Part shown: in pieces, positions 19,832-46,250 of the stretch
Layout: every line of letters starts with the position of its first letter
Position numbering within the stretch: the first letter of the stretch is position 1
Assembly: GCA_951799425.1 (NCBI GenBank)
Contig: OX637394.1
Coordinates: forward strand, 10,286,501 to 10,350,500
Length of the DNA stretch: 64,000 nt
Source of the DNA: Ilex aquifolium
Taxonomy: Eukaryota; Streptophyta; Magnoliopsida; Aquifoliales; Aquifoliaceae
Direction: 5' to 3'
Notes under the pieces: model-generated
Seen by the model: only the letters and a program-made list of their open reading frames with translations
What the model was told of the DNA's origin: nothing
Databases searched by the model: none
Made by a program: the position numbers and the translations under genes

Positions 19832-22800
19832 TAAGATTAAGATTGACTAGTACTCGACACAAATACAAAATAACACAATCCAAAAAATCACAGAACTCGG
19901 TTGTAGCCCTAATCAAAAGAAAGTCATCTATTAATTCAAGTCAACTTTCCAAACATATTACTTTCCGGAACTTGCCAAACATATTTGCCCACATGACATC
20001 TAACATGTAGCATCTAAAATAACACAATGGGAATGAATTATTTTTCACAACAACATTAATTTGGGAATTGAACTAAAAACTAACGTTAATTCGGCAAAGG
20101 CACTCTTTCTCATGTAAATTGTTTTGTAATATTCTAACAAAACTCTTAATTCATTTGTTAGAATTCTCTTGAATACAAAGATTATATTATACAATACAAA
20201 TCTCAATAATCAAATTCTATATGCCCCGACTTTTATAAGCAATCAAATGGAGAAGTGCATAGTACATGTAATCGAAAGTTGAGAACGTTGTGTCTACCAT
20301 TACGAGGGCCAACACAAACCAAACAAGGAACATGTAAAAGATCATAAAGGTGGCTATGAAGGTCCCCGGGTGGCTCTCAAGTATATAGCCTTGCAAATAA
20401 GCGGTGGCGGACAAGCCGGTGGAGTACATAATTGTGAGGGAGGCTGCTATGGTTTTTACTGGAACTGCAATGTGAAAATCATTGGTGTCGAACCGCGATA
20501 CTTGGATTAGAATGAGGTTTGTCAAGGAAAGAAAGGCGAAGAACAGAGCTAACCCTATGTAAGCCATGAAGAACTGCATTTCCTGCCAATGATCGGAGAG
20601 GAACATGGGGTCCCCGGTATTCTGATTGAAGCCACCAGGGACAGTGAAAAGTGATGCGAAATTAATTGTGCAGATGAGGGTGGCGGCGATTATTAAGTTA
20701 GCACTCACGTGTTTTGCTGCTTTCTCTGCTTCTTCTCGAAGAGATGAGTGATTTTCTTCAAATAGTTCCTCTGCTGTCTTTCCATCCATGTTTCGAAGGT
20801 TCTGTAAGTGTGGATAAGAGTCGTGCCTTACGCGCTGTGGAAAAAATGAAAAAGGATTAGGGAGGCATCAAATTAGTTATTAATGCAAAATGCTATTTGT
20901 ACTTAGTTTGAGGGTCAAATTTGTTATAGTTGTTAGATGAAAAATCAATCTCAACAAATATTGGGCTTCAAAAACTGATATAACACACAAACACACAAGA
21001 TATTTTCAAAATTGCTTTAGTACCTTGAACCAAAGCACATCCCAACTCATCTGGTTTGCCATTTCAACACTTCCCTGCTTCGTTAAGGCATGATTTCTGA
21101 CACACGATGCGAGGTGCAAGATGGTGTTCCCTCGGTTATCAATATCCGCCAGCATCCTATCTTTATAAGCTAAAGAACTCATCAAGTATTCATAAAGAAA
21201 TCTATGCTTCTGCTCCACCGCTATATGCAATATATTCCTTCCATTCTCGTCAAAGGAGTCTGCAGCCACGGGATATTTTTGGAGGATCACCATTACCAAC
21301 TCAAGAATGCCAAACGTTGTTGCCTGTATGAGCGGGTTGGGTACCTTATTCTTCTTCCTTGAAGAAATCCCAAATGAGCTGACTTCGGGATCTATATTTT
21401 CACTGTAAATGTAATGACTCCAATGTTCTTTTTCTATCAGTTTTTGTGCCAGCTTTTCGACAACTTCATGCTTCTGCTTTGCATCGTAAATTTTTCCGAA
21501 AAACCAGTAACCTAATAGAAGAGGGACAATTATAGCAGTAGTTATATAAGGAGAATACTAGGATAAATAGTCTAGGGAGAGTGACACTTCTCTTTAAAAA
21601 TCATAAAATTTTGGCTCTTTCCCTAAAGATTAAAAGTCTGGTATTGGACTTGAATTTCTTTAAACGCTAAATATATGTGCCAATTTGCATAAAATGTCTC
21701 ATTTGTGTACGTTGAAAAATCATGTGTCATGCATTTGGTCTGACATTATTAACTATTTATGAGGCAAAGTTACACTTTTAATATCTTTCAAGGTGTCAAA
21801 TGACATTGTGATATCTTTAGAGAAATGGCATAACAAATACCACCGGTGGCACATTGTTACGCTTTTGAAAAATTAAAGAGTTAATGCGAAATCTTTTATC
21901 TTTGAGAAAATACAAAAAAAAATCTAAAATCCATGAGAGGCAAAACACTTGAGATACTACAATTGAAAAGGAGAGGGTGAATAGTATGTAAATTTTTCAA
22001 TGGATAACAAAAACAAGAAGAAGAAAAATAAGAATAAGAAGAGGTACCACACCTAAGATAACTCTGATGAAAAATGATATTTTTACCCTTGAGATACCAA
22101 CTCTGTTATCAGACGGTGGATCCTCTACATCACCAGCCACTTGTGACTCTGAAACTTTCTCGTCAATCCTTGTTTTTATAACTGCTCAACCACACAATAA
22201 GGAATTCAATAAATTTTTCTTCACCACAAAACTTAAAAAGAATTTCTAATCAAGTAGATCATTCTATAAATGTTTTATAACAAGTAGGTTTTTCTACCAA
22301 ATGAAAAAGATAAACAAAGAATTGGCACTATATTTCAACAAACTCAGAGAAGTAGAATTGATTCCATAATTGTTTTGAGTGTTTTTGCTTAAAAATAAAT
22401 AATTTCGTCAAGTAAACAAAAAAAAAGTTCGACTAGTATTTTGTAAAAGTGATATGATATCTTAGTAGATAAAAAAAACAATTTACTCAAAAAAATCTTT
22501 AAAAAGCAAAAAAATATAATAATAATATTTAAGAGAAGTGTTATCAAACATTACCTTAATTTTTGTTTTGTTTGACAAAAATTAAAGACCAAAATCAGAA
22601 TTCTATTGTGAAAAACAAAATAAATAAGACTCCGTTTAGTCCCTACTAATGGGCTCCTGGAGGGATCAATTGGGTACATACCTGATTTTTTGCATTGTTT
22701 GCATAGGATGACTGCCTCAAAATCATTTAGCATAATGACTATTTATGTAAACTAATAAGCCATATTGAAGAGTAAAACAACTAGTGATATGTAACAGTAT

Positions 22801-24035
22801 GTCAAACCATCTGCTTCAATGCTTGCTACTACAATATAATGGCATAACGCTTACACTTATATACCACAGCTTCAACCATCTGCAAAGGAACGAAGGGTGT
22901 CCTGCTCAGATCCTTCAACACATACGCTGACTTGCTTTTGAAAGAAGATGATTTTGTAGCCAACAAACTCAAAACAGTCATACCATTTTCATCACGTTTG
23001 TCAGCAAGATCAGGGTACGATTCCAAGATGCGAATAGCCAAACCTAGTTGACATAAGTTGCAAAAAATTTAAGTTAGGATGATAGTTGGGTGGCTTTTCA
23101 TATATGACTTCACATTTCTTATACACAAGTCTTTGTTTGGTAATACTTTTTAATGTAATTTTTAAGTAACAAAGTAAATTTGTCAAAAAAGTAAAAGCAT
23201 TTATAATTATTGTTTCGCAAAAGTGATCTAGATTCATTTTAGTATATAAATAATAAATTTTCAAATATAATTATTCATGTGATTAAGGTTAGAGGAAGGG
23301 AAGATAAAGCAAAACAAAAAAAATATACAAAAACAAATGTGACTTAAAAAAAGCAAAAACGTATTTACAAAAGAGTAATTCTATTTAGACCTAAAAATCT
23401 GACCTAATTTGTTGACACAATAATGTGGCTTCATATGAATCATTGGATTAACACCAAGTTCTAATGTTGGATGGGGTCTACAGTGAATACAAAAGTCACA
23501 ATGAATTAGGTTAGCAAATTATATCAGTAAATTAGGTCTCAATAGCATTGCTCATTTACAATGAATTAGGCCACTGTTCTTACTCTTAATTATCACATGA
23601 GAAGCCTAGTGTGTCACATGTCACCACTTCATTAGTCATCCAAAATTTTGTCTTGTAATGTCTGGGCTGACCCAAAAGATCGGTGGCCCAGCCCAAACCG
23701 CCACATGAAGGTTTCTGAGTTATTTAAGCCCCACTGATATAGCCCATCGAGAAGAACAAATTTAAAAATAGGAAATTTTGGTGGCCGGTCCCTTTTTTGG
23801 GAATAACTTATTGTGAAAATTGGAAGTGAGTCCCCCTAGATGTACTTGTTTGGAGATGAGTCCGGCAAGGAAACTTATAAGGGGCTAAGTCCATATTTAA
23901 AATTATATGTAATGACTTAAGTCCACTTTTTTTTTTTATCTCAAAAATACCCTTCCTTGAAAGGAAGTTAAATTAATTTCCTATTTTGGAAATTGTTATC
24001 CCTTAATTCAAGGTCAATTAAAATATGCTAATAAA

Positions 24036-24070
24036 ATCTCCATCATAAATTTAAAATTCAAATTCAAAGA

Positions 24071-24102
<32 letters not shown>

Positions 24103-24194
24103 AAATCTCCATCATAAATTTAAAATTCAAATTCAAAACTCTCTCTCTTTCTCTTTCTCCTCTCTCTCTATATATATATATATCAAATTCAAAA

Positions 24195-24227
<33 letters not shown>

Positions 24228-24263: not shown

Positions 24264-24323
<60 letters not shown>

Positions 24324-27844: not shown

Positions 27845-28368
27845 TCTATACTACTAATAAAAGTACCCTAGCATAAAAAACTTTTGATTCATTATTTTAC
27901 CCTTATAAAGAATTTTAAATACCACATTATTCTTCCATAGTGAAATAGTTAAATTACCATCATATCCTTAGTGTTTAAATTTCCAAATCACCCTTAACAT
28001 CTCTTTTAATTCTTTATTCTTTATGTATAAATATCAATATCTATGAAATTTTTTGATTGACTATGTTACCCTTAAAAATAAACATTAATTAGAATATTGT
28101 TATTATTTTATTCAATGAATTATAAGTTGAAACCTAATCAAATGAATTTCAAAATAAATTATTTTTATCTTTTTTTCTTATAGTTAGAACAACGAATCGT
28201 TGAGAACAAACAAAATTTTTCAAATTCTATAGTATAATACGAACGATAAAAACATAATTTTTATAAACTTGATATGATATTTAATTTAGGTACACATATA
28301 CCTAAAAAATTTTATTAAATTTTATAAACGAAAATTATTCACGTGCAATGCACGTGGTCCATTACTAG
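27845..28368 (+). mobile_element. Non-autonomous Helitron
   Basis: Starts TCTATACTACTAATAAAAG after an A, and ends with the 7-bp-stem hairpin CACGTGC-AAT-GCACGTG (28340-28356) then ...CTAG followed by T. The ends match the family of 8929-9919 in the opposite orientation. Length 524 bp; no coding sequence. Confidence 0.82.
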
Positions 28369-28859
28369 TTTCAATAAATGTCATAATAGAACATAAATTT
28401 TGGTTGTAAAATTCATGTTCGATTATGAATGACTTAGACCCTTTTTTTTGATTTTTTAGTTTTATTCCAATAGATAGTATAATTGCATACTAAGTATGAT
28501 TTTTTAAGAAAAAATTAAATTTTTATTTTTGATTTTATTTCAATAAATGATACAATAGAATAGGAATTTTGGTTGTAAAATTTAAAATATTTGATATTAT
28601 ATCTTTAATAGAAGTATTTTTTGTCTAAGTATAACATTTTAAACTTGAAGGATCTAAGTATTATACGCTTACAAACTTCAAAGAGTCTGGGTGTAATTTA
28701 CTAACGGATATACTAAAAGACATTCATGTTCTGTTGTTTGATTGTCGTAGATCTCGGAAAAATACCCGGATTCAAAAAAAAAAATCGCCACAAACAAACA
28801 ACCGAGCACAAAGTTATAGCCGTTCAAAATTTTGTCATTTCTTTATGCTTTTCTAGTAC

Positions 28860-29460
28860 TCCACCCGGCGCCAGTGCCAGCGCCCAGCATCTCAATGCTA
28901 GAGCCTGTGCGCATACTTGCTCCAAGCGTCGCCTAGACCACATACTCAATGGCGTCGCCCAGTCCGTTCCAAGGGCATCGCCCACATCCTAGGCGTCCGT
29001 GCTAGCCAGCGTCTAGTACCCTTTGCACGCCCAGCCTAGCGCCGCCAGCAGCTATCCTGCGTAGGCGTCGCCCAACCTAGCGCTTTTAGCAACTATCATG
29101 CGTAGGCGTCGCCTAGCTTGCCTTGCCAGCGCCCAGCGCCCCAGGTGGCACCCAACGTCCAGGCTTCGCCCTCCTCTCCTCCAGTGGAGCCATCCAAGCC
29201 CAGGGCGTCGCCCAAACCTCTCCGGCGTCGCCTCCCACGGGCTACCTGCCTCCCTCGCCAAGGATGACTGCCCATGGCCTCCGCCAGCATGGTTGTCGCC
29301 TGATGCGTGCCCGCTGCCTGGGTTGCCTTCTTTGGCGTTGCCTTGTTGGCCTTCTTTGGCATCGCCACTGCCCAAGCCAGCATTGTTGATAACGTCGCCC
29401 ACAACGACTATCGCCGTCGCCTCAAGCCTCACCAAGGCGTCGCCTCCAACGTCCTAAGGA
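28860..29460. repeat. GC-rich degenerate GGCGTCGCC repeat
   Basis: About fourteen imperfect GGCGTCGCC/GGCATCGCC motifs at irregular spacing, in a block far more GC-rich than the rest of the window. Open frames on both strands here follow from composition. It lies inside, or next to, the 3' internal part of an LTR element (LTR at 29663). The related solo LTR (36190-36265) has its own CTGGGCGCC repeats. Confidence 0.6.
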
Positions 29461-29662
29461 TAATACTTTAACTACGATGAGGAGTTTTTGTGGTTGGATC
29501 TGCTGGAAGACAACTGCTATGATTGTGGTTACCCAAGCATGGTATTCCAAGATGAAAGTAGCCACTGCCGTGTGAAGCAAGGTACCTGGACGGCCTCAAT
29601 AAGGAATACGCTCATGTCCACAACCTTTTGTCGCTACAAGGGCTTAGGGCATGGGGGACAAA

Positions 29663-30255
29663 TGATAAGCCCAGATTTAGCTAGGCCAGGCCCAATCTAT
29701 GGAGTAAGCCCAAATTAGCTACGAAATGGGTCAAGCTCAGTTCAAAGATTCGGCCCAGTCCAGAGTTCAAGGAGTCCAGAAGAATTAGCGCACGTGGGGA
29801 ATAATTACCGAGATAGCCACTCTCAGAGATCGACACTATCTCTAATTGTATCTATCTTAGTTGTAGCTATCCTCCTCGAAAAGTTAATAACCTACCCATC
29901 ACGTCACCGCCTCAACTAAGGTTCTGTGCTTATAAATTGTAAGCCCTCTCCACATGAGAGGGGCATTTCTCTACACACTTTACACAACTACCTCTCTCAT
30001 AGCTACCTAGAGCGTACCCTTGCACTCTCTCTCTCTTTCCTCCACCTACTACTTTATCAATAAAGTCCACCAGCCACCATTGCCGTCTTCATAGTGGAGT
30101 AGGTTACTCCGACCAAACCACTATACATCTGTATGTTGTCTGCATTGACTCAATATTTATGTCTTTATATTTACTGCATTTATTACCCATATTAATTACT
30201 CAGTATCAATACACTCGACTGTTGATTGTGCATAAGTCTATTTTGTACATCATCA
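29663..30255 (+). mobile_element. LTR of a retrotransposon, with adjacent polypurine tract
   Basis: Begins TGATAAGCCC immediately after a purine tract (29646-29662, GGGCATGGGGGACAAA) and ends TTTTGTACATCATCA. It contains a promoter-like TATAAATTGTAAGCCC (about 29931) and an AATAAA signal (about 30058). The solo LTR at 35706-36428 has the same order and the ending TTTTGTGCATCATCA, so both belong to one family, probably Ty3/gypsy. The 5' part of the element was not found. An LTR plus purine tract implies it is the 3' LTR of a truncated copy. Confidence 0.65.
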
Positions 30256-30579
30256 TTTCATATCAAAGTTTTAAAATACAAAATTTATGGAAATTAGTTA
30301 TGAGAATATTTATTAAGAGGGTAACAATTTCAAAATTAGAAAAATTAATTTAACCATGTTTTCAAGGAAGGCTATTTTAGAGTTTTAAAAAAATAGAGGA
30401 CTTAACTACTTATTAGTAAGATTAAAATATGACTTATCCCCAAACGAGTTTTCTTGACTAACTAAACTCATTAAAAGTCCATTGAGGAAGATTCAACTCT
30501 GATTTTCACTTAAGGGGGACTAAACTCATTAAAAGTACGAGGAAGAATAAGAGAGGAATACAAAATTATATAAGGTAAA

Positions 30580-31430
30580 TATCTTAATCAATTCTTAAAT
30601 TTTGTCTTTTGTTGTAAAATCATCTTTGAACTTTCAACTTTTTATAATTTAGTCTCCAACTATCATTTTTGTGTCAATTAAGTCATTCCATCAATTATAT
30701 CAATTAGAACAAAGAACAGTCACATGACAAACACGTGACTTGCTTCCCGGTTGAAATTGATGAAAAAGCTTAATTGACATGAAATTAATAGTTGGCAGAC
30801 TAAATTGAGATAATTGAAGGTTCGTGAACCATTTTAAAACAAAAGATAAAGTTTGAGAACTAATTATAATATTTATCCAATTATATATACTCCGGGTGGC
30901 CCTATCCCTATCGCGAATAAACTAAACTTTAAAGGGAACCAACATAATATCCTGCAAAATTAATACAAATGTGATTGATCAAAAGACAATTTCACAAACA
31001 TATGGGGGACTAAATTCCATTAATGGCTGAAATTGATTTTTTTTTTTTTTTTTTTTAACTGATGGCTGAAATTGATGAAAAGACATAATTCATATGAAAT
31101 TAATACTCGGTGGACTAAATTGAGAGAGTTAAAGGTTCAAGAACCATTTTAAAGCAAAAGACAAAGTTTGAGGAGTAATTATATTACATATGCTTCGGGT
31201 GGCCCTATTGTGAAGAAACTAAACTTAAAAGAGAAGCAAACCAACATAATATCCTGCAAATGTAATTGATCAATGGTTGCCTTCGCCCCTAATGCAATGT
31301 TGTACTTGTGGAGGGTGGGTAATTTAAGCTTTTTAATGGAGGAAATAAAAGAGATAATTCCATCAAAATTTGTGGTTGGTTTGACCAGCATTTGAATGAA
31401 TATTAACAAATGAATGGAATTGAAAACTTA
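30580..31430. other. Tandem intron-1 segments at the presumed recombination joint of gene 2
   Basis: The intron segment occurs twice. 30580-31040 resembles gene 3 intron 1 (ATTATAATATTTATCCAAT), and 31060-31430 resembles gene 1 intron 1 (ATTATATTACATATGC). A T run separates them (31039-31060), with TGGCTGAAATTGAT on both sides. Genes 1 and 3 each have the segment once. Confidence 0.65.
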
Positions 31431-31927
31431 CTGTAACGTTCTCCCTCAATGGCAGCATGAAGAATGGTGGAGCCATCGTACCTCCTTATCCTGCAATCGC
31501 TATTGTAGCTTTCCAGAAGTGTGAAAACTTCACTCTTTCCAAACGCAGCAGCAAGGTAAAGAGGCGTCTCGTTCAAATCATTCCGCTGGAAAACTAAATC
31601 TGGCTTCTTCGTCACCATGATCTCCGCCACTGCCTTCTGACCAGACCTAGCAGCTTCATGCAGCGCAGTGTTGCCGTTGGCATTCTTTATCAGGAGCATT
31701 TCGTCGAGCAGGTGGTCTGCCCGAAGTAGGTTTCCCAAGGCAGCCACATTCCCTTTGATGGCCAGAAGGTGGAGGACTGTGTCGCCGCGTTGGTCAATTG
31801 GTACTGCGCCTTCATCTCTCCAGAAATTACAGAAGAATTCCAATGATTCTGCTGTATCTTCTGAGGCAAATTTGTAAGCTTTGGAGTACTGGAGTAAAGT
31901 GCTGAATTCTGTTTCCGAGTTCTCCAT

Positions 31928-32036
31928 TTCGAGTGAGTTTAACGAGAAATATACTGATGGTAATATTGGGAAAGATGAGAAGCAATGCATCATATATATA
32001 CATATACACCTACCTCTCTCTCTCTCTCTCTCTAAA
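31928..32036 (-). promoter_or_regulatory. Putative core promoter and leader of gene 2
   Basis: A TATATATA stretch at about 31992-32000 lies some 65-75 bp upstream of the ATG, with a (GA)n tract beyond it (CT at 32014-32033). The same order occurs in genes 3 and 4. Inference from conservation only. Confidence 0.4.
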
Positions 32037-33715
32037 CCAAGAAAAAAGAGGATAAATTGCTTATGCCAATTACACTTTTACTTTTCTATGATTTGGAATC
32101 TTACTCTTTATTCCTTTGGTTCGTACCTCTCAATTTTTGGTTGGTAGCTTTTCACTTTTTGTTTTAAAATTTCAGTGTTTTTCTTCTTGCAAATTTTGTA
32201 TTTCTTGAAAAATCTATTCAAAGCCTAGAAACGAAACAGTTGAGGAAGAGATTGATTAATTTTAGAGGTAGGAAAATATAATATGTATACAAATATTTTG
32301 ACATGTTATTTTGTTGAAAATATAGACTTTTGACTCTTCCTCGACCGTAATTTTTTACAAAATTTCTAATGATTTTAATTTGAGCCAAAATCTCAGAGAT
32401 TTACGTGCAAATTGATAGAATATAAGGAAGTTAACATGTTTTTAGAATAGAAGTCAACAAAAAAAATTATTATTTTTTCCAATGAAAAAAAGAGGTGAAA
32501 AATGAGAAACAACTATAAATCATTACCTCGTACTAATTACTTAAATTCTGATTCAAATTTAAATTTGATTAAAAATAACTCATTTCTTTTACTTAAACTC
32601 GTATTAGATTAGGAAATACTCGAATTTTCAATTAAAATTTCAACCACCCGATTTCACCATCTTTTAAAGATTTGACAATTATATTTCACCATTTTCTATG
32701 GATCTCTCTACTCTATCATTCACAATGATATCATTTATCAAGTTTAGATTAGATCTATTGACCAAAAAAATTGTTTAGATTAGATATTCTTTTATAAAAA
32801 TTTTGAGGAATCAAGTATTATGAGTTTTTTTTAGCTTAGAAAAAAATCTACAATATAAAATATGACATGATTTCATAAGCCTATCCGACGCTCTCAAATA
32901 GACTTATCCAACAACTACTAATATATTTCTTAAAACCATTTACATTGTACCGTGTTTTTAGGTACGGGTTACCCCTAGTATTAAGATATGAGTTAAAATG
33001 TGATAAAGATAAAGAGGAAAATAAGATTTGGGAGCGAATGGATAATTAAAATGAAAAGAAATTTTGGAGGGAAAAAGGTATGGGAAAAAAAAAATTTGAT
33101 GACAAAAAATAAAAGAAACACCGTTGAGAGAAGATGAGAATTTTTTGAAAAGAATTGAGTAAAAATTGTTACTCAAATTTTGATTTAAATTAAAATTTTT
33201 ATTTAATTGTTAATTCAAATTTGAGTAAAAATTTGAGATAGTTTTAAAAAATAAAAAATAAATAAAGCTCACATCATGTTTCACCCGTAGGATTAAGGAA
33301 TAAAGGAGGAGAAGTTGGAGACAAAAAGCAACAGCAGACTATTTTGGAAAGTGATTCTTCTGGAAACCATACATCTCTCATTGTAAAGTACTTTTGGTGT
33401 TCACGTATATAGTAAGTGCCAAACAAGGAATAAAGCTCCTATCCATTCTACAAGATAATAAGAATTTAGTTAACTAAGAAGGAATAAAGTAGTGTCTTTT
33501 GAGTATCTTCATGAACAAATATTTTCCTTGTGGATTTTGTGGCCAAACAAGACTCCTTTTTAAAATTTCAAAATTTAAAACTTCTAAAGTTGGTCGTAAA
33601 TTCAACACTCAACAATAAAATTTTGTAACTCGTCTTAAATTTTTAATTTGACATTCATTGTAAATTTTAATTTGGTTGTCAATGAAACCATATCACTTAG
33701 ATTAGCGTAGACAAA
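32036..33715. other. Spacer upstream of gene 2, duplicate of 13046-14411
   Basis: No gene seen. It keeps a copy of the dispersed spacer repeat (33270-33490) that is nearly absent from unit 1. The rest is AT-rich DNA aligning with unit 1. Confidence 0.6.
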
Positions 33716-33763
33716 GCCAAGTATCAGTCTATGATCATGCCTATAGGACGCGGTGCTTATGGT
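33716..33763 (+). pseudogene. MAP-kinase fragment (glycine-rich loop), unit 2
   Basis: Sixteen codons read AKYQSMIMPIGRGAYG, nearly identical to 14412-14459 and in the same relative place. It was copied together with the array unit. Confidence 0.7.
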
Positions 33764-34315
33764 CAAGAACATATCTAAGATTTTATGGTGAAGGGGGGTC
33801 AAAGAGTAGCACCATAAGAAATCTTATTCAATAGGGTCATTCATCAAATTATTTATCGTTATTGTTAAATTTTTACTTATATAAATATTATGAGAATTAA
33901 CTTTGCTAAAATTAATATGAATAATTAAATCAAAAAAATTTGATCGTGTAACAATTTCATTTTTTTTTTGTTCCTTTTGATAATCAATCATGTTTTTTCA
34001 TCTATAATAGCAATTCTCATTTTTAAGACCGAGCCTATCTGTCAATTGGTTTTTAATTGTGTGTCCATTAAGTTTTTTTTTAAAATATATTACAAGAAGT
34101 ACATGTGTGAAAAGATTCAAAGGGGTATAGGATTTTTCAAGGGGATGCATAAGATTTTTTAAAACATTAGAGGGGGTATATGAAAATTTTGAAAAATTGA
34201 GGGGGTATGACCACCCTTGGTCCCCCCAGTACATGTTTTATTACAAATTATATCGATCATTAGTCGTTAATTTTCACAAAATTTCCAATAATTTAAGCTT
34301 AGTCCAAAACACTTG

Positions 34316-34687
34316 GGGCCTGTTTGGTATGTTTTTTAGGAGAGATTTGGATTGACTTGACTAAACCCTTCCAAACTCAAAGATGAGATTCAAAGATGGG
34401 ATTCAACATTTAATACTGTTTATACCCATGTTTGGTATGCGCAGGAATACATGATTATTATGATAATATATTTGTATATAAATGTTATTTGAATGTTAAA
34501 CTCATTAACCCACATATGAAACTCATGAACTTGGGTTTCATGACTGGGCATAAACCGGACTGAGTTCTAAACCTGGACTAGATGTGTATTTGTCAAACAT
34601 GGGTTTGAGGGGGTTTATTCCCCAACCCATGTTCCAACCCCCACCCCCCCCAAAAAAAAAAAAAAAACCACCGTACCAAACAAACCC
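34316..34687. mobile_element. MITE with GGGCCTGTTTGGTA ends
   Basis: Terminal inverted repeats GGGCCTGTTTGGTA and the complement of TACCAAACAAACCC, flanked by TTG on both sides (34313-34315, 34688-34690). Unit 1 is uninterrupted at about 15043. Length 372 bp, no coding sequence. The end type and 3-bp duplication fit Tourist-like PIF/Harbinger MITEs. Confidence 0.72.
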
Positions 34688-35186
34688 TTGAGGATACAGA
34701 TCAGTTTATAGATCATAACTAGTGGTCCATCCCGTGGGATGCGCGGGATTTTAATTCGTGTCTTTTTTTTATTATTATATTTATCCCCCCTCCCCCCCCC
34801 CCCCCCCCTTTTTTTAGTTTATTACTTAAGAAGTTAAATAAACAATTATAAAAAGTTTGTGAGTGAGAAAAAGTAAATTTATAATAAATTTAAAAGAATA
34901 GTGGTTAGTTATTGAGGAGTTGAGATGTAGTTATAAATCACACATGATAGAGTTTGATTGAAGGAACCTTGAGGTTTTGAATTAAAAAATTCTAAATTCT
35001 AATAAACTAAAAAGTGAGGAGGGAAGGTTTCTCAGACACTTTCACCTCTAAATTGTTTGTTATATACAAATAAGAGATAATAAATTATTGGGACAAATAC
35101 AAAGGCAATAATCTATAATTTGCTCAAATGAAAGAGGTGAAAGGAATGACTATGAATCATCTCCTTTCCTTAGTAAGAAGACAAGC

Positions 35187-35636
35187 ATAAAGCCCATCAA
35201 GATTAATGGACAACAAAGGAAAAGTTTGAGTGCCAAATAAAAATCAAAAAATATTTAGTAAATTGATTCTTCTGGTGATATTTTATGTAATAAAGAGTTG
35301 GAAACCATATACTTTGATGACCAATCTTTGGTATTTATTTAGGGTAAGTGCCCGGAAGAAAAGAAAAAAGCCGCTATCCATATTGCAAGAAAAGAATTTA
35401 GTGAATTATAAATAATAAAACTCATCAAGAGTAATGAACAACAAAGGAAAAGTTTGAGTCCCAAATAAAAACCAAAAAAAAATTAGCAAAGTGATTCTTC
35501 TAGCGACACATTATGTAATAAAGAATTAAAAATCATATACTTTGATGGCCGACCTTTGGTATTTATTTATGGTAAGTTCCAGGAAGAAAAGAACAAAACC
35601 TCTATCCATATTGCAAGAAAAGAATTTAGTGAACTA
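35187..35636. repeat. Tandem pair of the ~225-bp spacer repeat, unit 2
   Basis: Two direct copies corresponding to 15984-16435. The doubling therefore predates duplication of the unit. Confidence 0.75.
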
Positions 35637-35705
35637 TAAATATCGTATAGTTGTCCTGGATAAATAATTTTTTTTCGAGTTTTTGGCCGAAATAATAATA
35701 CTCCT

Positions 35706-36428
35706 TGATGATGCACAAAATTGGCTTTGCACACCACCTGTCAAATATGAATAACAAATACAGTAATTAAAGTAGAGGGAGAGAGAATACAAGAATTATA
35801 GTAGTTCAGTCAATACGACCTACGTCCACTTTTGAATGGCTAGAGCTGCCGGATTATTTTATTAACTCCGGTGAGTAGAGAGAACGGAGAGTTACAGGCT
35901 TAGAGATAGAGAGGAGTTTTTGTGCTCAATAGAGTGTGATCTGATCCGATCTGCCCCCAAGTGTTAGTAGGGCTTACATTTTATAGTCGTCCCATAACAG
36001 ATTGAGGCGACTTAATAACAATTGTCCAACTATTCTGGTGGGGCTTGCGACTTCTTCTCAACGGGCGAGACAGTTGCGGTGCTCTCCATGAGACTCGGTC
36101 AAATGATGAGGTGAAGGTTGACTGTTTCCAAGGTGGTGGAGGTGAGGCTCTTAGAATGACCCTTACTCCAAGGTGGTAAGGATGAGGGCTGGGCGCCTGA
36201 GGAGGAGAGCTGGGCGCCTGGCGTGATGGCCTGGGCGCCTGGGATGGTCTGGGCGCCCAGTTTGGGTGTCAGGGGTCCTTGAATGATCTTGTGTGCTCCC
36301 AGCTAATTTAGCTCCTTGATCTTGATGAGCTTGACCGGGTTGACCATATTGGGCCGGATTTGCTGGTTCTCTAAGAGTCGGGCCCTTGGGCTTGTAACAT
36401 GAATTAGGCCATTGGGCTTGGCCCATCA
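35706..36428 (-). mobile_element. Solo LTR (probable Ty3/gypsy family)
   Basis: A 723-bp LTR with TGATG...CATCA ends, flanked by a perfect 5-bp duplication CTCCT (35701-35705 and 36429-36433). Unit 1 (about 16490) has no insertion. Read on the minus strand it has a TATAAAATGTAAGCCC promoter-like motif and an AATAAA signal in the same order as the LTR at 29663. It also carries five CTGGGCGCC-type repeats. No internal region is present, so LTR-LTR recombination is likely. Confidence 0.82.
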
Positions 36429-36514
36429 CTCCTAAAATTGCCAATCTGACAATATTGTTGAAGACCGTTTAAAAAAAATAATAGTATTACAGAAGTAATT
36501 CTCTCAGTGATCAA

Positions 36515-36666
36515 TAATGCTATGCTGATCAAGTTTTTTTACAAAAATTTTTATCCTAAGTGATGTGGCACATTTTTTACAATTAAGTAAGTGAGTTCTG
36601 TTAATATTTAATTATAAAAATTATGTCACATCATTTGAGGTGAAAAACTTGGTAAGTATAACATTA
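36515..36666. mobile_element. Short MITE
   Basis: A 152-bp sequence with inverted ends (TAATGCTATGCTGATCAAGT and the complement of ACTTGGTAAGTATAACATTA) and subterminal GTGATGTGGCAC / GTCACATCATTT. Unit 1 lacks it. The target duplication is not clear. Confidence 0.6.
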
Positions 36667-38640
36667 CTGATAATTAAATTTGCCCCGGGATGCAAAGAAA
36701 AACATACAACATAGTTTCATTTGGGACCTTGGAGTCATGTATAAGCCAGAGTTTCAAATGATGATATTACATTTGAATTTGCGTCTACTACCTAGATCTT
36801 TTGAAATTATTGTAACACCATTTCGATATATTTCCATCACAACTCACGAGTAGGATGGTAATTTTGACACTGTGTGTAGAAGGCCAGACAAAAATATTAT
36901 ATAGAATTATCCAATTAAGATTGATTAATTGTTGACACGAACGCAAAAGTGACACGACTATTAACATGAATAATAATGGAGCCACATAGAGACAAATACA
37001 AATAACATTATTTTGACACAAATTTATTTAGTATTGTACGAAGAAAAAGTATTTTTTTTTCCTTTGTTTCATTTCTTGAGCTGAAATGGTATTAATACTT
37101 ATAGAATTAGAAGATTTGTTTTCCTGATTTTGCTAGTATATGAATTTTTAGTTTATGGAAGACCTATCAGTAATTAGTTTGGTTGAGATAGAAGAAGTTT
37201 TAGCTTTAATTTTTCAGAAAATTGTAAGTAGGTATCTTATGAAATATTTATTTGTGAGAAAATACCTTACTGAAAATGTATTGCAGATAAGTACTATTAG
37301 TTGGAAATGTATTGTGTTTAGATATGCAATGACAGTTTTTTTAATTTTCCTTTACTGAAAAATCATTTTCCATAATTTATGGACTATTTAGTTTGACAGT
37401 TCCTCTTTCCATGAGATTTAGTTTTATTAAATCAGTGGTTTCCTATTTTAAAAGACTTTTATTTTTAAATTTTAAATGTATATCATCTTCTTCAACTTCA
37501 ACGTCTAATGCTCGTCTTCTTCAACATCTTCTTCTACTTCAACTTTTTTACTTCAACGGCTGGTGCTCGTCTTTTACATCAATGTCTACAGTTTTCACTC
37601 GCAAGTTGTGTATTTCTTCTTCTTCAACGTTTGCTATTTCCATCCATAGGTCGTGTTTTTCTTCTATTTCAACGACTTATTAATAAATTTCTGATTGGTG
37701 TTTAATTTAATTTTGTTTTATTTTTTGGAAGACACTGTAATTGTTCTTAAAGGCAACAGTGAATGGAATGGATATCACATTTGATTGTCAAACTTTTTAT
37801 ACCCAATTACGGTTGTTGTATTGTATTGTTACACTGTGATGTAACACTGCTATTCCATAAAAGCAATATATGTATTTGTCGAACTTTAGATATTACATTG
37901 TAATGTCACACTATGTAAAGCATACCATTTAGCTTGTGCATGAATCTAAAAATGAAATTGCACATATTTTGTCAGTAATTAAAGTGTTAATTAAGTTGTT
38001 ATACTATGATATATCACTGTAATGTAAAAACCCAATGATAAGAATCCTAGTTCCCTAAAACATTCTGTTATGCTTCCACATGTTAATGGTTTAACTTAAA
38101 CACTAAAATATAATTACAAATCAATCAATTCATAGTTAGTTCTGTAGACATTGTCGGTGGTTGCAGTTGAAAAAATCGACAGTCAGACTTTAATGGTGTT
38201 CCAACGAATGCACAAAGATTTTTTTAGTTATCACAATTTTTTGTTGTTTGTGTTTTTGATTTGGTTAAAATCTCATAGATTTTACGGTATTTTTATTTGA
38301 ATTTCAAACACCATGTTTTATTTGAATTTCAAACAACCTATTTTACACGATATCGTTTGTCGCCGATTTTCATAGATATGCTGCTTAATTTTTGGTGGTT
38401 TCCAAACCCATTAGTTTGAGCCGGTTAATTTTTATTGTGGGTATATTTGGTATTCACAAATAAAAAAAAATCTCTACACAAATAATTTTACTCGAAGGAC
38501 TATTACACAATTAAGTCCTACAAAAAGCCCTTAATTTTTTTAGTTCACAAGTTATGCAGAACAAACATAATAAATAGATCAGATTGGTTTCTATACATCC
38601 AACACAATTAATCAAGTAAGATAGATTAAGATTGACTAAT
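36667..38640. other. Spacer between genes 2 and 3, no gene seen
   Basis: Aligns by eye with 16680-19130. It contains the CTTCAACG-rich degenerate repeat (37490-37680) and AT-rich DNA. It lacks the insertions at 17960-18430 and 19151-19831. Confidence 0.55.
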
Positions 38641-38997
38641 AGTCAACACAAATAACATAACCCAAAAAATCATAAAACTCGATGTAGCCCTAATCAAAAG
38701 AAAGTCATCTATTAATTCAAGTCAACTTTCCAAACATATTACTTTCCGGAACTTTCCAAACATATTTGCCCACATGACATCTAACATGTAACATCTAAAA
38801 TAATACAATGGGAATGAATTATTTTTCACAACAAGATTAAGTTGGGAATTGAACTAAAAACTAACGTTAATTCCGCAAAGGCACTCTTTCTCATGTAAAT
38901 TGTTTTGTAATATTCTAACAAAACTCTTTATTCATTTGTTGTAATTCTCTTGAATACAAAGATTATATTATACAATACAAATCTCCATAATCAAATT

Positions 38998-41900
38998 CTA
39001 TATGCCCCGACTTTTATAAGCAATCAAATGGAGAAGTGCATAGTACATGTAATCGAAAGTTGAGAACGTGGTGTCTACCATTACGAGGGCCAACACATAC
39101 CAAACAACGAACATGTACAAGATCATAAAGGTGGCTATGAAGGTCCCCGGCTTGCTCTCAAGTATATAGCCTTGGAAATAAGCGGTGGCGGACAAGCCAG
39201 TGGAGTACATAATTGTGAGGGAGGCTGCTATGGATTTGACTGGAACTGCAATGTGAAAATCATTGGTGTCGAACCGCGATACTTGCATTAGCACGAGGTT
39301 TGCCAAGGAGAGAAAGGAAAAGAACAGAGCTAACCCTATGTAAACCATGAAGAACTGCATTTCCTGCCAATGATCGGAGAGGAGAATGGGGTCCCCGGTA
39401 TTCTGATTGAAGCCACCAGGGACAGTGAAAAGTGCTGCAAAATTAATTGTGCAGATGAGGATGGCGACGATTATTAAGTTAGCACTCACGTGTTTTGCTG
39501 CTTTCTCTGCTTCTACTCGAAGAGATGAGCGATTTTCTTCGAATAGTTCCTCTGCTGTCTTTCCATCCATGTTTCGAAGATGACGTAAGTGTGGATAAGA
39601 GTCATCCTTTACGCGCTGTGGAAAAAATGAAAAAGGAATAGGGAGACATCAAATTAGTTATTAATGAAAAATGCTATTTGTACTTAATTCAAAGGTCTAA
39701 TTTGTTATAGTTGTTAGATGAAAAATCGATCCCAACAAATATTGGGCTTCACAACTGATATAAAACACAAACACACAAGATATTTTCAAAATTGCTTTAG
39801 TACCTTGAACCAAAGCACATCCCAACTCATCTGGTTTATCACTTCGACACTTCCCCTCTTCGTTCCGACATGATAATCAACTCTCCATTGACTAGCAACA
39901 TCTATGATTTTAGGATGAGAACTAGCAGGATTTTCGACATACGATGCGAGGTGCAAGATGGTGTTCCCTTGGTTATCAATGTCCGCCAGCATCCTATCTT
40001 TATAAGGCAAAGAATTCATCAAGTATTGATAAATAAATCTATGCTTCTGCTCCACCGCTATATGCAGTATATTCCTTCCATTCTCGTCAAAGGAGTCTGC
40101 AGCCTCGGGATATTTTTGGAGGATCGCCATTACCAACTCGAGAATGCCGAACGTTGTTGCCTGTATGAGCGGGTCGGGTACCTTATTCTTCTTCCTTGAA
40201 GAAATCCCAAATGAGCTGACTTCGGGATCTATACTTTCGCAGTCAATGTAATGACTCCAGTCTTCTTTTTCTATCAATTTTTGTGCCAGCTTTACGACAA
40301 CTTCATGCTCTTGCTTTGCATCGTAAATTTTTCCAAAAAACCAGTAACCTAATAGATGAGGGACAATTGTAGCAGTAGTTATATGAGGAGAAAAGTAGGA
40401 TAAATACTCTAGGGAGAGTGACACTTTCTCTTTAAAAATCTTAAAATTTTGACTCTTCCCCTAAAGCTTAAAAGTCTCATATGGGACTTGAATTTCTTTA
40501 AACGCTAAAAATATGTCCCAATTTGTAAACAATGTCTCATTTTCGCACGAAAGATGTAAAATGACATTGTGATATTTTTAGAACAAATACCACCGGTGGC
40601 ACATTGCTATGCTTTTGAAAATTTGAAGAGTTAATGCGAGATCTTTTATCTTTGAGAAAATACAATAAGGATAGGGCGAATAGCTTTCTCCATGCGTTTT
40701 ACCACAGAAGACACCGACATTTGACTTCTATTCTTTAAGAGATTCAGCTTCTTTAAACAACAATCAATTATGTATATTGTTCAATGGATAACAAAGACAA
40801 GAAGAAGAGAAATAAGAATAAGAAGAGGTACCACACCTAAGATAACTCTGATGAAAAATGGCTTTTCTCCCTTTGAGATACCAACATTACCAGCCAATTG
40901 AGACTCCGAAACTGTCTCGTCAATCCTTGTTTTTATAACTGCTCAACCACACATGAAGGAATTCACTAAATTTTCCTTCACTGCAAAACTTAAAGAATTT
41001 GTAATCAAGTAGACCATTCTATAAATGTTTTTATAATAAGTTGTTTTTCTACCAACTCAAACAGATAAACAAAGAACTTTTTTTTATTATTAAAATTCAG
41101 CGAAGTAGAATTCATTCCGTAATTGTTTAAGTGCTTTTGCTTCAAAATAAATAATTTCGTCAAGCAAACAAAAACAAGTTTGACTAGTATTTTGTAAAAG
41201 TGATTTATGAATTTTAGTAGATAAACAAAAACAATTTACTCCAAAAAAATCTTTAAAAAGCACAAAAACACAATAATAATATTTAAGAGAAGTTTTATCA
41301 AACGGTACCTTAATTTCCATGTTGTTTGACAAAAATTAAAAAGCAAAATCAGAATTCTATTGTGGAAAAAAATAAGACTCAGTTTAGTCCACACTGATGG
41401 GCTCATGGAGGGATCAATTGGGTACATACCTAATTTTTTGCATTGTTTGCACAAGGTGACTGCCCTCAAAATCAATTAGCATAATGACTATTTATGTAAA
41501 CTAATAAGCCATATTGAAGAGTAAAACAACTAGTGATATGTAACAGTATGTCAAACCTTTTATTTATCTCGAGTTTCAGTAGTAAAATGAAGGAATCAAT
41601 TTTCATTTTGAAGGTCCAATGTGTGAAAACTTCATATAAAATGTCATATCCAGAACCAGTGTACAAATATCCCGCATATAGCGGGTTTGGAAGAGGTAAA
41701 TGGTAGCTTTACCCTCATTTTTTGTTGGTCAATTTCTAGACTTGATGTAACTTTATATGAAAAATTTATTAACTTCATAAAGGAAAAAAAAAAAAGAAAA
41801 CGAAAAATTGGAAACCTCAAGTCTTATGCCAATTTAGTTCTTTGTTATTTGATTGTTTACGAGAAATATCTATCAATTTATATTTTCAGTTATATCCTCA

Positions 41901-42739
41901 AAAGGGAAGGAATGGGAATAAACTGGTAAAAATATATAAACCAAAAATTTATCTTCAATGCTACTACAATATAATGGCATAATGCTTACACTTGTATACC
42001 ACAGCTTCAAGCATCTGCCAAGGAATGAAGGGTGTCCTGCTCAGATCATTCAACACATACGATGACTTGCTTTTGAAAGAAGATGGTTTTGTGGCCAACA
42101 AATTCAAAGCAGTCATACCCTTTTCATTATGTTTGTCAGCAAGATCAGGGTACGATACCAAGATGTGAATTGCCAAACCTAGTAAACATAAGTTGCAAAA
42201 ATTTTAAGTTAGGATGATAGCCGGAGAGGCTATTCATATATGACTTCACATTTCTTACATAATAGTCTCTTTTTAATGTAATTTTTAAGTAACAAAGTAA
42301 ATTTGTCAAAAAAGTGAAAGTATTTGTAACTATTGTTTTGCAAAAGTGATCTAGATTCATTTTAGTATATAAATAATATATTTTCTTTTATAATTACACA
42401 AGTGATTAAGGTTAGAGGAAGGGAGGATAAAGAAAAATTAAAAATTAAAAAAATAAAAGAATATAAAAACAAACGTGACTTAAAAAAAGAAGAATAATAA
42501 ATTCTTGAGCCCAATTCGACTGGCTGACCTATTTAAGCCCCACCAGACACAGCCCGTCGAGAATAATAAAGGGTAATTTAGAAGCCGGTACAAAAATTTA
42601 GACTTATTTGAGTTAAACTACATTAAAAAAACTTATTTGGCCCTAAGTGCATTTTTTTGAAAAAAGACTAAAAGGGTATTTATTACTCCATTACTCTCTC
42701 TCCTCTCTCTTCATTACTCTTTCCTATTTTCTCTCTATC

Positions 42740-42805
<66 letters not shown>

Positions 42806-45800
42806 TGATAAAAAAAATTTAAATATGTAAAGATTTGATTTAATTTTGTCATCTCTCTCTCCCCTTATTTCCTTATTCGCTCCCTTTTTCTCTCTCCTTA
42901 TATCAATATTACACAACACAATTATACTAATCAGTTACACCAATTAGTTACAACAATTACCCTATAATACACTAAACAGTTACTCATGTGTTCTAATAAA
43001 CTAAACAGTTATACTAAACAATTATACGAAATTACAACAACGACTCAATTTGTCATTTTGTTTTTTACATAAATCAAAGAGTTACACCATTTAGTATCAC
43101 GACATGGTTACATTAATTATATACACCAAATTGAGTTTATCATTACACAAAATACTTTATCATTATACTAAATTTGATATATATGATTGGTGTAACGATG
43201 TCGCGATACTAAATAGTGCAACTATTAAGTTTATGTAAACAATTGAATGACAAATTGGGTTGATATTATAAATTTGTGTAATTGTTTGGTGTAACTGTTT
43301 GGTTTATTAGAATGTATGAATAACTGTTTGGTATATTATAAGACAATTGTAACTGATTGATGTAACTGATTAGTATAATTATGTTGTTGTAATGTTGATA
43401 TAAATAAAGAGAGAAAATAGGGAGAGAGAGAAATAGTTACAGAAAATAAGGGGAGAGAGATGAAAAAATAAATCAAATATTTACATATTTGAAAATAAAA
43501 TAAATTATGAATGATAGATATAGAGAGAAAATAGGGGAGAGATAGGGAAAGTAAAGGGGAAAGAGAGAGAGAGATGGAGAGAAAATAGGGGAGAGATAGT
43601 GAAAGAATCTAATGAAATCTTTACATATTTGATTAGATATATAATTGTCAATTAAGAATGCATAATTTAAGGGAGGGTGTTTAGGTAAAAAAAATTTTAA
43701 TTCATTTGAATTTTGTACCTAAACACAAAAATTTTTATAAAAATTGTACTTAATGGAATAAACAACTTATTCATACACTTTTGCCTAAATAAGTCTAAAA
43801 AATTATACCCATACCTAAAAAACCCAATAATAAATTGTGAAAATTAGAACCAAGTACAATATGAGGATCTCTTTTGTCAATAGGTCCAGATGCGATCTTT
43901 TTGGGTCATTAAAGACAGTCACTTGAAATAATTCAATCATTAAGTCCAAACTAATTGTGAAAGACTTTTTTAAAGACAATACTACCCTTCTAAATTAAAT
44001 CTGTTTTATCACTATATATTTTCGATGCATATTCTTCCGATTCCGATTGTTTTTCCGGCGGACTCGATCTATTCTTTCTGATACAAGACTATCTCAACCT
44101 AAAATTGATTAGTTGAATATTTTTTTTCTTCTCACTCGATCTTCCTGAAGCTGCGATCAGATTGAAGCAATATAATATTCAATGGCTATGGCGGTCGACG
44201 CTTGTTTTTCTCGATTCTCGATTTCTTGCATTTTTTTCCCTCATACTCTTCCTTGGAGTAAGAAGTGATGCGATGAAGATAACCAAGAAAAAGAACCAAA
44301 ACAGATTTCATTGTTTTCCTTTTGGTTCAGTCTATTTTTTGATCTAATTCTTCACACAACACAATCTTTTTATGAAGTTGTTCTTCGCTATTTGTGCACC
44401 TTTTTATGTTGGTTTGGTTTAGGAGTGAAGCGAAGGTCCCAGCAAAGAGGGTAAGGACTCTGGAACGAGGCCTCTCTACCACTAACAAATGATACACCCA
44501 AATGGTGTTTGATGAAATGCATTAGAAACTTAACAATCCAAATTCCATTTCAAACTCAAGTTATTTAAATACATCAAATTTGTTAATAGTGATGGTTGAC
44601 TAAATTGGACAAAATTTCTTTGGTATTAGCCAAAATCTGTTTCAAATTCATACCTAGAAATTTGGATAGTGACAACGAAATTCACTATCTTTGTCACTGT
44701 CACTGTCACTGTGATCGTGTTGCTGTCCAATCCACGTTACTGTCTAGTTCCGTATAATTTTGACAGTGACGATGAATAATAACGATAAAAATTCACATTA
44801 CTTAGTTCTGTGAATTTTGGATAGTAACAATAAAAATTCACTATCGTTGTAACTGTTAATATCTCAATATTACTGTCATATGTTACTGTTATTATCTCGC
44901 TGTTACTATTACTGTTTATTTTTGTGAATTTTGGCCAGTTAAATTAATTGTCACTGTTCCAATATAAATGTTATATATTACTATTACTGTTTTGTTGTTA
45001 CTATCCATTTTGTAATATAACTATTTATGTCATTAAGGGTAAGATAGTCTTTATACTTTTAATTGTCCTTTAACCTCCAAAAATAACTCGTCTATCCTTA
45101 TTGACCCAAAAATCCACAATGGTGGATCGGCCTCCAAAAACCCCTAATAAATTTAAAAGTACGAGGTCGAATCAAGATAGGAGTACAAAATTATATGGAA
45201 TAAATATCATAATTAATCCTTAAACTTTGTCTCTTATTTTAAAATGATCCTTAAACTTTCAATTATTTCAATATAATCCCTAAACTATTAATTTTGTGTC
45301 AATTAAGTCTTCACGTCAATTTCATCCTAAAACAAACAATGACACGTAATGTGGACGACTACATAACAAACACATAACTTGTCTTCGTTTGTTCTAATGG
45401 CTGAAATTGATGGAAAAGCTTAATTGACACGAAATTAATAGTGGGTGGACTAAATTAAGAAAATTTGAGGTTCATGAACTATTTTAAAACAAAAAACAAA
45501 GTAGTTTGAGGACAAATTATAATATTTACCCAATCATATATGCTTCGGGTGGCCCTATGGAACCCACAATTTCCTGCAAAATTAATACAAATGTTGCTCC
45601 TAAAGCAATGTTGTACTTGCGGAGAGTGGGTACCTTGAAGTTTTTTAATGGAGGAAATAAAACAGATAATTCCATCAAAATTTGTGGTTGATTTGACCAA
45701 CATTCAAATGAATATTAACTATAATGAATGGAATTGAAAACGTACTGTAATGTCCTCCCTCAATGGCAGCATGAAGAATGGTGGAGCCATCGTGCCTCCT

Positions 45801-46250
45801 TATCCTGCAATTGCTATCGTAGCTTTCCAGAATTGTGAAAACTTCTCTCTTTCCAAACGCAGCAGCAAGGTAAAGAGGCGTCTCGTTCGAATTATTCCGC
45901 TCGAAAACTAAATCTGGCTTCTTCGTCACCATGATCTCCGCCACACCCTTCTGACCAGACATCGCAGCTTCATGCAGCGCGGTGTTGCCTTTGGCATTCT
46001 TTCTCAGGAGCATTTCGTCGACCAAGTGATCTGCCCGAAGTAGGTTTCGCCAGGCGGCCACATTCCCTTTGATGGCCAGAAGGTGGAGGACTGTGTCGCC
46101 GCGTTGGTCGATTGGTACTGCGCCTTCATCTCTCGTGAAATTACAGAAGAATTGCAATGATTCTGCTGTATTTTCTGAGGCAAATTTGTAAGCTTTGGAG
46201 CGGTGGCGTAAAGTGTTGAAAACTGTTGCCGAGCAGGAGCTGCTTGCCAT
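38998..46250 (-). CDS. Gene 3: ankyrin-repeat/PGG-domain membrane protein (ACD6/ITN1-like)
   Basis: Predicted exons 46250-45746, 42178-41990, 40938-40837, 40423-39804 and 39615-38998 give one open frame of 677 residues. All introns are GT-AG with phases 1, 1, 1, 0. The start is the ATG giving [11 protein letters not shown]; the frame extends further upstream only through a TTG. Order: about four to five ankyrin repeats in exons 1-2, a linker with a hydrophobic stretch ([13 protein letters not shown]), two to three more ankyrins in exon 4, then the PGG domain ([14 protein letters not shown]) with four predicted membrane helices. Relatives act at membranes in defence and stress signalling; the role here is not known. 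Exon 3 is 27 bp shorter than in the paralogues, in frame. Intron 1 (3.6 kb) contains two inverted-repeat elements. Expression is untested. Confidence 0.85.
42571..43825. mobile_element. Non-autonomous MULE in intron 1 of gene 3
   Basis: Flanked by a perfect 9-bp duplication AATAATAAA (42562-42570 and 43826-43834). The ends GGGTAATTTAGAAGCCGG and the complement of ATACCTAAAAAACCC, plus shared TTTAGACTTATTT subterminal blocks, form the inverted repeat. The interior has a long CT run (42744-42800) near one end and GA-rich runs near the other, and several ACACAATTA/AATTACAACA repeats. No transposase. It sits inside an older insertion that runs on to 45145. Confidence 0.78.
42744..42800. repeat. 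(CT)n microsatellite
   Basis: About 28 CT units inside the MULE at 42571-43825. Confidence 0.92.
43826..45145. other. Older inverted-repeat insertion in intron 1 of gene 3
   Basis: The right end (GGATCGGCCTCCAAAAACCCCT) resembles the ends of the element at 23769-25132. The subterminal GATCTTTTTGGGTCATTAAA (about 43892) pairs with an inverted copy near 45100. Short AATAA direct repeats occur at the edges. Gene 1 lacks the block. The interior contains TTACTGTTA-type repeats (44660-45010). No protein family recognised in it. Confidence 0.45.

What the first reader, a model, noticed from the sequence alone, without database searches (positions are those of the whole stretch)
20217..46250. Gene 2 is a recombinant of gene 1 (exon 1) and gene 3 (exons 2-5)
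Exon 1 of gene 2 is nearly identical to gene 1, but its exons 3-5 are clearly closest to gene 3. The spacer between genes 1 and 2 matches the spacer between genes 2 and 3. A tandem duplication whose crossover lay in intron 1 explains all of this at once. Intron 1 of gene 2 indeed holds two tandem versions of one segment, gene-3-like then gene-1-like, meeting near 31040-31060 at a T run with TGGCTGAAATTGAT on both sides. The duplicated unit is 'front of one gene + spacer + back of the next gene'.
Basis: partly seen in the sequence, partly recalled or inferred. Interest (0 to 1): 0.72.

Follow-up and report, generated by a model that had tools for sequence, protein, structure and literature searches.

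The report
Patchwork gene in a holly gene array
One gene in a row of related plant genes has its front from one neighbour and its tail from another, a known way for such gene rows to make new combinations, here with a join at a small transposon in the first intron.

Summary
The window lies on chromosome 4 of English holly (length match), in a one-strand array of ankyrin + PGG membrane-protein genes (ACD6/ITN1-like by domains). Genes 1-4 read as intact five-exon genes.

Confirmed: gene 2's exon 1 is gene-1-type (99.2%; 91.3% to gene 3) and its exon 5 gene-3-type (94.5%; 84.9% to gene 1); topology tests reject the alternatives. The two spacers match. Intron 1 of gene 2 holds two versions of one segment, parted by a T run at 31037-31056.

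Not confirmed: exons 2-4 are not clearly gene-3-like (competing trees survive), and the first intron-1 version is equally far from genes 1 and 3 (30:31 sites). One crossover in intron 1 does not explain everything; two exchanges, or one plus gene conversion, are needed.

New: the repeated segment is a palindromic MITE, multicopy in the genome and shared by the introns of genes 1, 2, 3 and c; a neighbouring half-gene (X) breaks off inside it.

Precedent: Arabidopsis ACD6A is a published chimera that switches in the first intron (PMC4091793). A new member of a known kind.

The parts
31432..31927 (-). gene 2 exon 1 (ankyrin), gene-1-type
   Evidence: 99.2% to g1, 91.3% to g3; AU 0.992 with g1/c; boundaries
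22855..23043 (-). gene 2 exon 2, unresolved origin
22053..22181 (-). gene 2 exon 3 (linker), unresolved origin
21024..21511 (-). gene 2 exon 4 (ankyrin), unresolved to weakly gene-3-like
20217..20834 (-). gene 2 exon 5 (PGG domain), gene-3-type
   Evidence: 94.5% to g3, 84.9% to g1; trees without (g2,g3) AU <=0.0054; PGG hit
19834..20216 (-). 3' flank of gene 2, gene-3-type
   Evidence: 18 differences in 375 sites to g3; 45 sites with g3 only, 6 with g1 only
30573..30878 (.). first intron-1 version: complete palindromic MITE, 306 bp, between 9-bp repeats AATTATATA (30564-30572, 30879-30887)
30888..30983 (.). right flank of the MITE, first copy; the homology to g1 and c stops at about 30980
30984..31036 (.). 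filler at the join; its end repeats the start of the MITE right arm (word also at 31063 and in g3 at 45398)
31037..31056 (.). run of 20 T
31057..31186 (.). second intron-1 version: right arm only of the MITE, gene-1-like, with the 12-bp deletion also seen in g1 but not in c
   Evidence: 27 sites with g1, 9 with g3; letters compared
12202..20216 (.). spacer between genes 1 and 2
   Evidence: collinear with 31928-38997
31928..38997 (.). spacer between genes 2 and 3; 3215 of 4801 bases of 33800-38600 are matched in the g1-g2 spacer
1208..12201 (-). gene 1: exons 11706-12201, 4404-4592, 3240-3368, 1919-2496, 1208-1825; 669 aa
38998..46250 (-). gene 3: exons 45746-46250, 41990-42178, 40837-40938, 39804-40348, 38998-39615; 652 aa
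57466..60284 (-). gene 4: exons 59783-60284, 59392-59580, 58889-59017, 58219-58763, 57466-58083; 660 aa; short intron 1 without the MITE
11018..11319 (.). MITE in gene 1 intron 1
45201..45531 (.). MITE in gene 3 intron 1

Best explanation
Gene 2 is an intact mosaic gene made by ectopic recombination inside a tandem array of ankyrin-PGG genes, in at least two steps. (1) A block holding a spacer and the 3' end of the next gene (3' flank, exon 5, intron 4, perhaps exon 4) exists in two copies, behind gene 2 and behind gene 3 (shown by trees and distances); unequal crossing-over in the array is the likely cause (inferred). (2) The promoter side, exon 1 and the start of intron 1 of gene 2 come from the gene-1 lineage through an offset, end-joining-like break in intron 1: the left side keeps a whole MITE and about 100 bp of its flank, then a short filler and a T run, then the right arm of a gene-1-type MITE (structure shown, mechanism inferred). 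(3) Exon 1 of genes 1, 2 and c was then kept alike, probably by gene conversion (inferred). The middle of gene 2 (exon 2 to intron 3, and intron 1 up to the join) belongs clearly to neither neighbour. The likely product is a membrane protein with the gene-1 ankyrin front and promoter and the gene-3-type membrane (PGG) tail.
For: Exon-by-exon AU tests with outgroups b, d (and a for exon 1); AU tests by block; site counts; distance ratios to g4, 0.50 against 0.92, CIs not overlapping; MITE right arm g1-like 27:9 and a 12-bp deletion common to g1 and g2 and absent from c; offset double segment, T run, filler; intact ORF with GT/AG splice sites; collinear spacers, with more distant relatives of the spacer lying left of g1 and left of c.
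Against: The middle trees are unresolved rather than contradictory: (g2,g3) is also allowed there (AU 0.746 over exon 4 to exon 2), and intron 3 leans to g3 (28:14, p = 0.04). Transversions in 5' flank and spacer agree (27/946 and 114/3359), as a single block duplication would have it. Exon 1's low divergence is partly coding constraint. No donor of the middle was found. The order of the g1-g2 and g1-c splits in exon 1 is weakly supported in the tree (51%).
Confidence: 0.62

Rival explanations
1. One reading: one unequal crossover (tandem duplication) with the breakpoint in intron 1 made gene 2 from gene 1 (front) and gene 3 (back); later gene conversion blurred the middle and homogenised exon 1.
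For: Spacer, 3' flank, exon 5, intron 4 and exon 4 show similar transversion levels; the join lies in intron 1; (g2,g3) is allowed in exons 2 and 4.
Against: No positive sign that exons 2-3, intron 2 or the first MITE came from gene 3; g2-g3 is about as far as either is from g4 there (ratio 0.92); transversion levels differ between blocks (p = 4e-4).
Confidence: 0.3
2. No exchange in exon 1: it is alike in genes 1, 2 and c because of selection, and the array is otherwise an ordinary old tandem series.
For: The exon-1 core is mostly coding; genes have conserved ankyrin repeats.
Against: Exon 1 of gene 3 differs by 8-9% with dN/dS near 1; the intron next to exon 1 (20 sites with g1, 2 with g3) and the 5' flank (35 against 10) also side with g1; the MITE arm in front of it is g1-like.
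Confidence: 0.05
3. Assembly artefact at 31040.
For: A 20-T run and a repeat sit at the join.
Against: HiFi assembly with contig N50 15.2 Mb (PMC11109700, passages); no N in the 174 kb; both intron-1 versions have diverged from each other and from genes 1 and 3, which an assembly error would not give.
Confidence: 0.02

Closest known systems
Arabidopsis thaliana ACD6A of strain Se-0 (Todesco et al. 2014, PMC4091793; section 7 and passages seen)
   Same: Tandem ankyrin-membrane genes; a chimeric gene formed by duplication and recombination within the locus, 5' part from one neighbour and 3' part from the other, with the switch at the first intron; a neighbour (ACD6B) lacks promoter to part of the first intron, as copy X here lacks exon 1 and ends inside intron 1.
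   Different: There two almost identical parents and a very recent event within one species; here an older event with three parts, an unresolved middle, and a MITE at the join. Function is tested there, not here.
Lepore / anti-Lepore type fusion genes by unequal crossing-over between tandem paralogues (recalled, no call)
   Same: Hybrid between neighbours with an intact reading frame, extra copy in the array.
   Different: The textbook join is homologous; here the join is offset, with filler DNA, and more than one exchange is needed.
Wheat Lr14a locus (PMC7878491, passages)
   Same: ANK-membrane gene family; unequal crossing-over between tandem repeats proposed for loss of a segment.
   Different: A deletion caused by flanking repeats, not a chimera.

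Membership tests
ANK-PGG (ACD6/ITN1-like) membrane proteins | N-terminal ankyrin repeats | tested here: met
   Ank_2 in the exon-1 frames of g1, g2, g3 and the exon-4 frames of g2, g3, g4, E <=1.1e-13
ANK-PGG (ACD6/ITN1-like) membrane proteins | C-terminal PGG domain | tested here: met
   PF13962 above cut-off in exon 5 of g1, g2, g3, g4
ANK-PGG (ACD6/ITN1-like) membrane proteins | immune or stress function; orthology to ACD6 or ITN1 | not testable with these tools
   no plant protein collection and no expression data here
Chimeric tandem paralogue with a switch in intron 1 (ACD6A type) | 5' part groups with one neighbour | tested here: met
   exon 1 AU 0.992, six other trees <=0.0173
Chimeric tandem paralogue with a switch in intron 1 (ACD6A type) | the whole 3' part groups with the other neighbour | tested here: inconclusive
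   exon 5 yes; exons 2 and 4 unresolved
Chimeric tandem paralogue with a switch in intron 1 (ACD6A type) | physical join inside intron 1 | tested here: met
   offset MITE plus flank, filler, T run, gene-1-type arm at 30573-31186
Single unequal crossover (anti-Lepore type) | one divergence level along the duplicated unit | tested here: not met
   4/786 against 141/4305 and 183/5974 against 81/1637 transversions
Mutator-type MITE | long terminal inverted repeats, 9-bp target-site duplication, many copies, no coding | tested here: inconclusive
   hairpin z -10.4; AATTATATA on both sides in g2; 87 matching stretches with 40 of 420 candidates scored. The 9-bp rule for Mutator is recalled; one copy checked for the duplication

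The most novel reading that the evidence does not exclude
The palindromic MITE in intron 1 is a recurrent break site that lets promoter + exon 1 move as a module between ankyrin-PGG paralogues: it lies at the join in gene 2, and copy X loses its front exactly inside the same element. Together with Arabidopsis ACD6A/ACD6B, whose switch and deletion also fall in intron 1, this would make intron 1 a repeated exchange point of the family in distant plants.
Probability: 0.25. Interest if true: 0.55.

Novelty: new member of a known kind. Interest (0 to 1): 0.36.

Why it matters
ACD6-type genes carry major natural variation in plant immunity and growth, and a chimera of the same design causes hybrid necrosis in Arabidopsis (PMC4091793, section 7 and passages). 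A second, independent first-intron chimera in a distant plant suggests that swapping promoter + N-terminal ankyrin exon against the membrane tail is a repeated route to new alleles in this family, and it names a concrete DNA feature at the join that can be tested.

Tried and rejected
Single-event model: tested by trees, site counts, distance ratios and transversions and found insufficient alone.

Spacer divergence as proof of two ages: total differences are higher in the spacer (308/3359) than in the 5' flank (65/946), but transversions hardly differ (114/3359, 27/946), so I dropped an early idea that the gene-1-like tract ends near 33.0 kb.

Idea that the g1-g2 and g2-g3 spacers share sequence found nowhere else: rejected; 1801 of 4801 bases of 33800-38600 also match elsewhere in the 174 kb, mainly left of g1 and left of c, at 72-93%.

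Origin of the filler 30984-31036: only its end (MITE arm word) has a clear source; other 11-mer matches are at chance level. The genome-wide search for it did not complete.

Rows dropped: c exon 3 (44 bp left by a deletion) from exon-3 comparisons; X from exon 1; a from all but exon 1; b and d from exon 3; columns with poor local alignment. Exon boundaries were set by splice motifs, some by hand (d exon 4 upper end, g4 exon 4, b/d/a exon 1). Intron 1 beyond exon 2 in g1/c/X is not alignable to g2/g3 in the alignment and was not used for trees.
Full report
SETTING. The window is G000:C4:10286501-10350500 of an 800,232,872-base genome in 103 contigs; contig C4 is 53,228,141 bases long. English holly, Ilex aquifolium, has an assembly of 800.0 Mb with 20 chromosomes, chromosome 4 being 53.23 Mb (PMC11109700; abstract and passages). 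I take the window to be from that assembly; this is inferred from the lengths (the paper counts 104 scaffolds, the tool 103 contigs). Pfam finds ankyrin repeats in the exon-1 and exon-4 frames tested and a PGG domain in exon 5 of genes 1-4.

THE ARRAY. I read 174 kb around the window (no N). A protein search of the genome with exon 1 (150 of 211 candidates scored) gave eight places on C4 with 68-100% identity; the next best place elsewhere has 48%. In window coordinates the members, all on the minus strand, are: a (exon 1 at -71.5 kb, no exon 4 or 5 found, exon 2 lost by a deletion), X (exons 2-5 at -65.7 to -62.9 kb, no exon 1), b, c (exon 3 mostly deleted), d, and genes 1-4. Genes 1, 2, 3 and 4 translate without an internal stop to 669, 639, 652 and 660 aa with GT...AG splice sites.

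EXON BY EXON. Identities g1-g2 / g2-g3 / g1-g3 are: exon 1 99.2/91.3/91.3; exon 2 90.3/91.4/93.0; exon 3 87.3/88.9/90.9; exon 4 90.5/92.6/91.0; exon 5 84.9/94.5/85.7. With b, d (and a) as outgroups, exon 1 puts g2 with g1 and c (bootstrap 100; six other trees AU <=0.0173) and exon 5 puts g2 with g3 (bootstrap 99; five other trees AU <=0.0054). Exons 2 and 4 reject none of seven trees at 0.05. Blocks with introns say the same: 3' flank + exon 5 + intron 4, only (g2,g3) kept (others AU 0.0018 and 0.00004); intron 1 start + exon 1, only g2 with g1/c kept; exon 4 + intron 3 and exon 3 + intron 2 + exon 2, all three kept; 5' flank, g2 with g1 best (AU 0.975), one rival at 0.0125, the other just kept (0.0538).

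THE MIDDLE IS NOT GENE 3. The g2-g3 distance over the mean distance to g4 is 0.50 (0.37-0.63, 844 sites) in the exon-5 block, 0.97 (0.70-1.27, 488 sites) in exon 4 and 0.92 (0.74-1.11, 653 sites) from intron 3 to exon 2. Sites with g3 only against g1 only: exon-5 block 130:23, exon 4 to exon 2 86:62, Fisher p = 2e-7. Within the middle, exon 4 + intron 3 lean to g3 (51:27), exon 3 + intron 2 + exon 2 do not (35:35). Intron 1 next to exon 2 is 11 with g3 and 17 with g1 (p = 0.35). So the gene-3-like part is sure only from the 3' flank to intron 4.

THE JOIN. The repeated segment is a 306-bp palindrome (30573-30878) between 9-bp repeats AATTATATA. It folds on itself far better than shuffles (-59.3 kcal/mol, z -10.4, 0 of 100 shuffles) and matches 87 stretches in the genome with 40 of 420 candidates scored: a MITE. 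In the 174 kb it occurs in intron 1 of c, g1, g2 and g3 and as a left half in X; no match at a, b, d or g4 (BLAST, E 1e-5). The flanks are shared, so it was there before these copies parted. In gene 2 the whole MITE and about 100 bp of right flank are followed by filler (30984-31036), 20 T (31037-31056) and a second right arm that leads into exon 1. The second arm is gene-1-like (27:9) and has a 12-bp deletion found in g1 and not in c. The first MITE is equally far from g1 and g3 (30:31) and about 81-82% identical to g1, g3 and c. Homologous exchange between aligned MITEs would not leave one and a half copies; an end-joining-like event would (inference).

AGES. Transversions g1-g2: exon-1 core 4/786, 5' flank 27/946, spacer 114/3359, MITE arm 5/106. 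g2-g3: 3' flank + exon 5 + intron 4 31/1181, exon 4 11/488, intron 3 to intron 1 81/1637. Core against 5' flank + spacer p = 1e-6; spacer to exon 4 against the rest p = 4e-4. The core is partly coding, the c-g1 pair shows the same low value there, so recent homogenising of exon 1 among c, g1 and g2, or constraint, are both possible. The two spacers are nearest to each other; more distant relatives lie left of g1 and left of c, which matches the exon-5 tree, where g2,g3 and g1,c,X are separate.

READING. A spacer + 3'-end block was duplicated; the front of gene 2 came from the gene-1 lineage through an offset join at a MITE; the middle is of unresolved origin. Copy X ends inside the MITE too (its match to c stops at c -30218), so the element may be a repeated break site; two cases are few.

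PRIOR WORK. Todesco et al. 2014 (PMC4091793, section 7 and passages) describe ACD6A of Arabidopsis Se-0 as chimeric, formed by duplication and recombination within the locus, 3' part from At4g14390 and 5' part 'from the first intron on' from ACD6B, with ACD6B lacking promoter to part of intron 1. The kind is therefore known. Searches for Ilex + ankyrin + ACD6 and for ankyrin + PGG domain + tandem + unequal returned no paper in the held library; subscription journals are mostly not in it.

Noticed in passing
50090-53222 (+): Two long overlapping open frames that read like gag and integrase of a Ty1/copia-type retroelement between genes 3 and 4 (recognised by eye, no family search).
   Followed up: no
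54930-55598 (-) and 48751-49200 (+): Open frames that look like RNase H and reverse-transcriptase-type fragments of other elements (by eye).
   Followed up: no
11329-11445: Insertion in gene 1 intron 1, between copies of ATTACATATGCT, with T- and G-rich runs; absent from genes 2 and c.
   Followed up: partly
2009-2076: Gene 1 exon 4 holds a perfect 33-bp tandem duplication (ATSHPRNTDVA twice), not in the other copies aligned.
   Followed up: no
15982-16438 and 35187-35642: A repeat of about 228 bp, two copies in each of the two spacers, so the doubling is older than the spacer duplication.
   Followed up: no
42706-43606: Large imperfect inverted repeat (about 900 bp, 76%) in gene 3 intron 1.
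   Followed up: no
28001-30000: G+C-rich stretch (0.41) inside gene 2 intron 1 with open frames on both strands at 29052-29457.
   Followed up: no
62402-62756 and, right of the window, 72495-72792: Remnants of the 3' flank of a further gene copy upstream of gene 4 (76-87% in pieces).
   Followed up: partly
-71.6 to -62.3 kb (C4:10214900-10224200): Two complementary half-genes side by side: a (exon 1, no exons 2, 4, 5) and X (exons 2-5, no exon 1).
   Followed up: partly
genes 1-4, exons 1 and 5: dN/dS between paralogues is high (0.7-1.3 in several pairs), which fits relaxed or diversifying selection; no formal test was run.
   Followed up: no
-46.3 to -11.2 kb and to 12.3 kb: A block with copies b and c looks duplicated as d and gene 1 (b-d 97%, c-g1 89-98% in pieces); the c-g1 match stops at a TA run next to exon 1.
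   Followed up: partly
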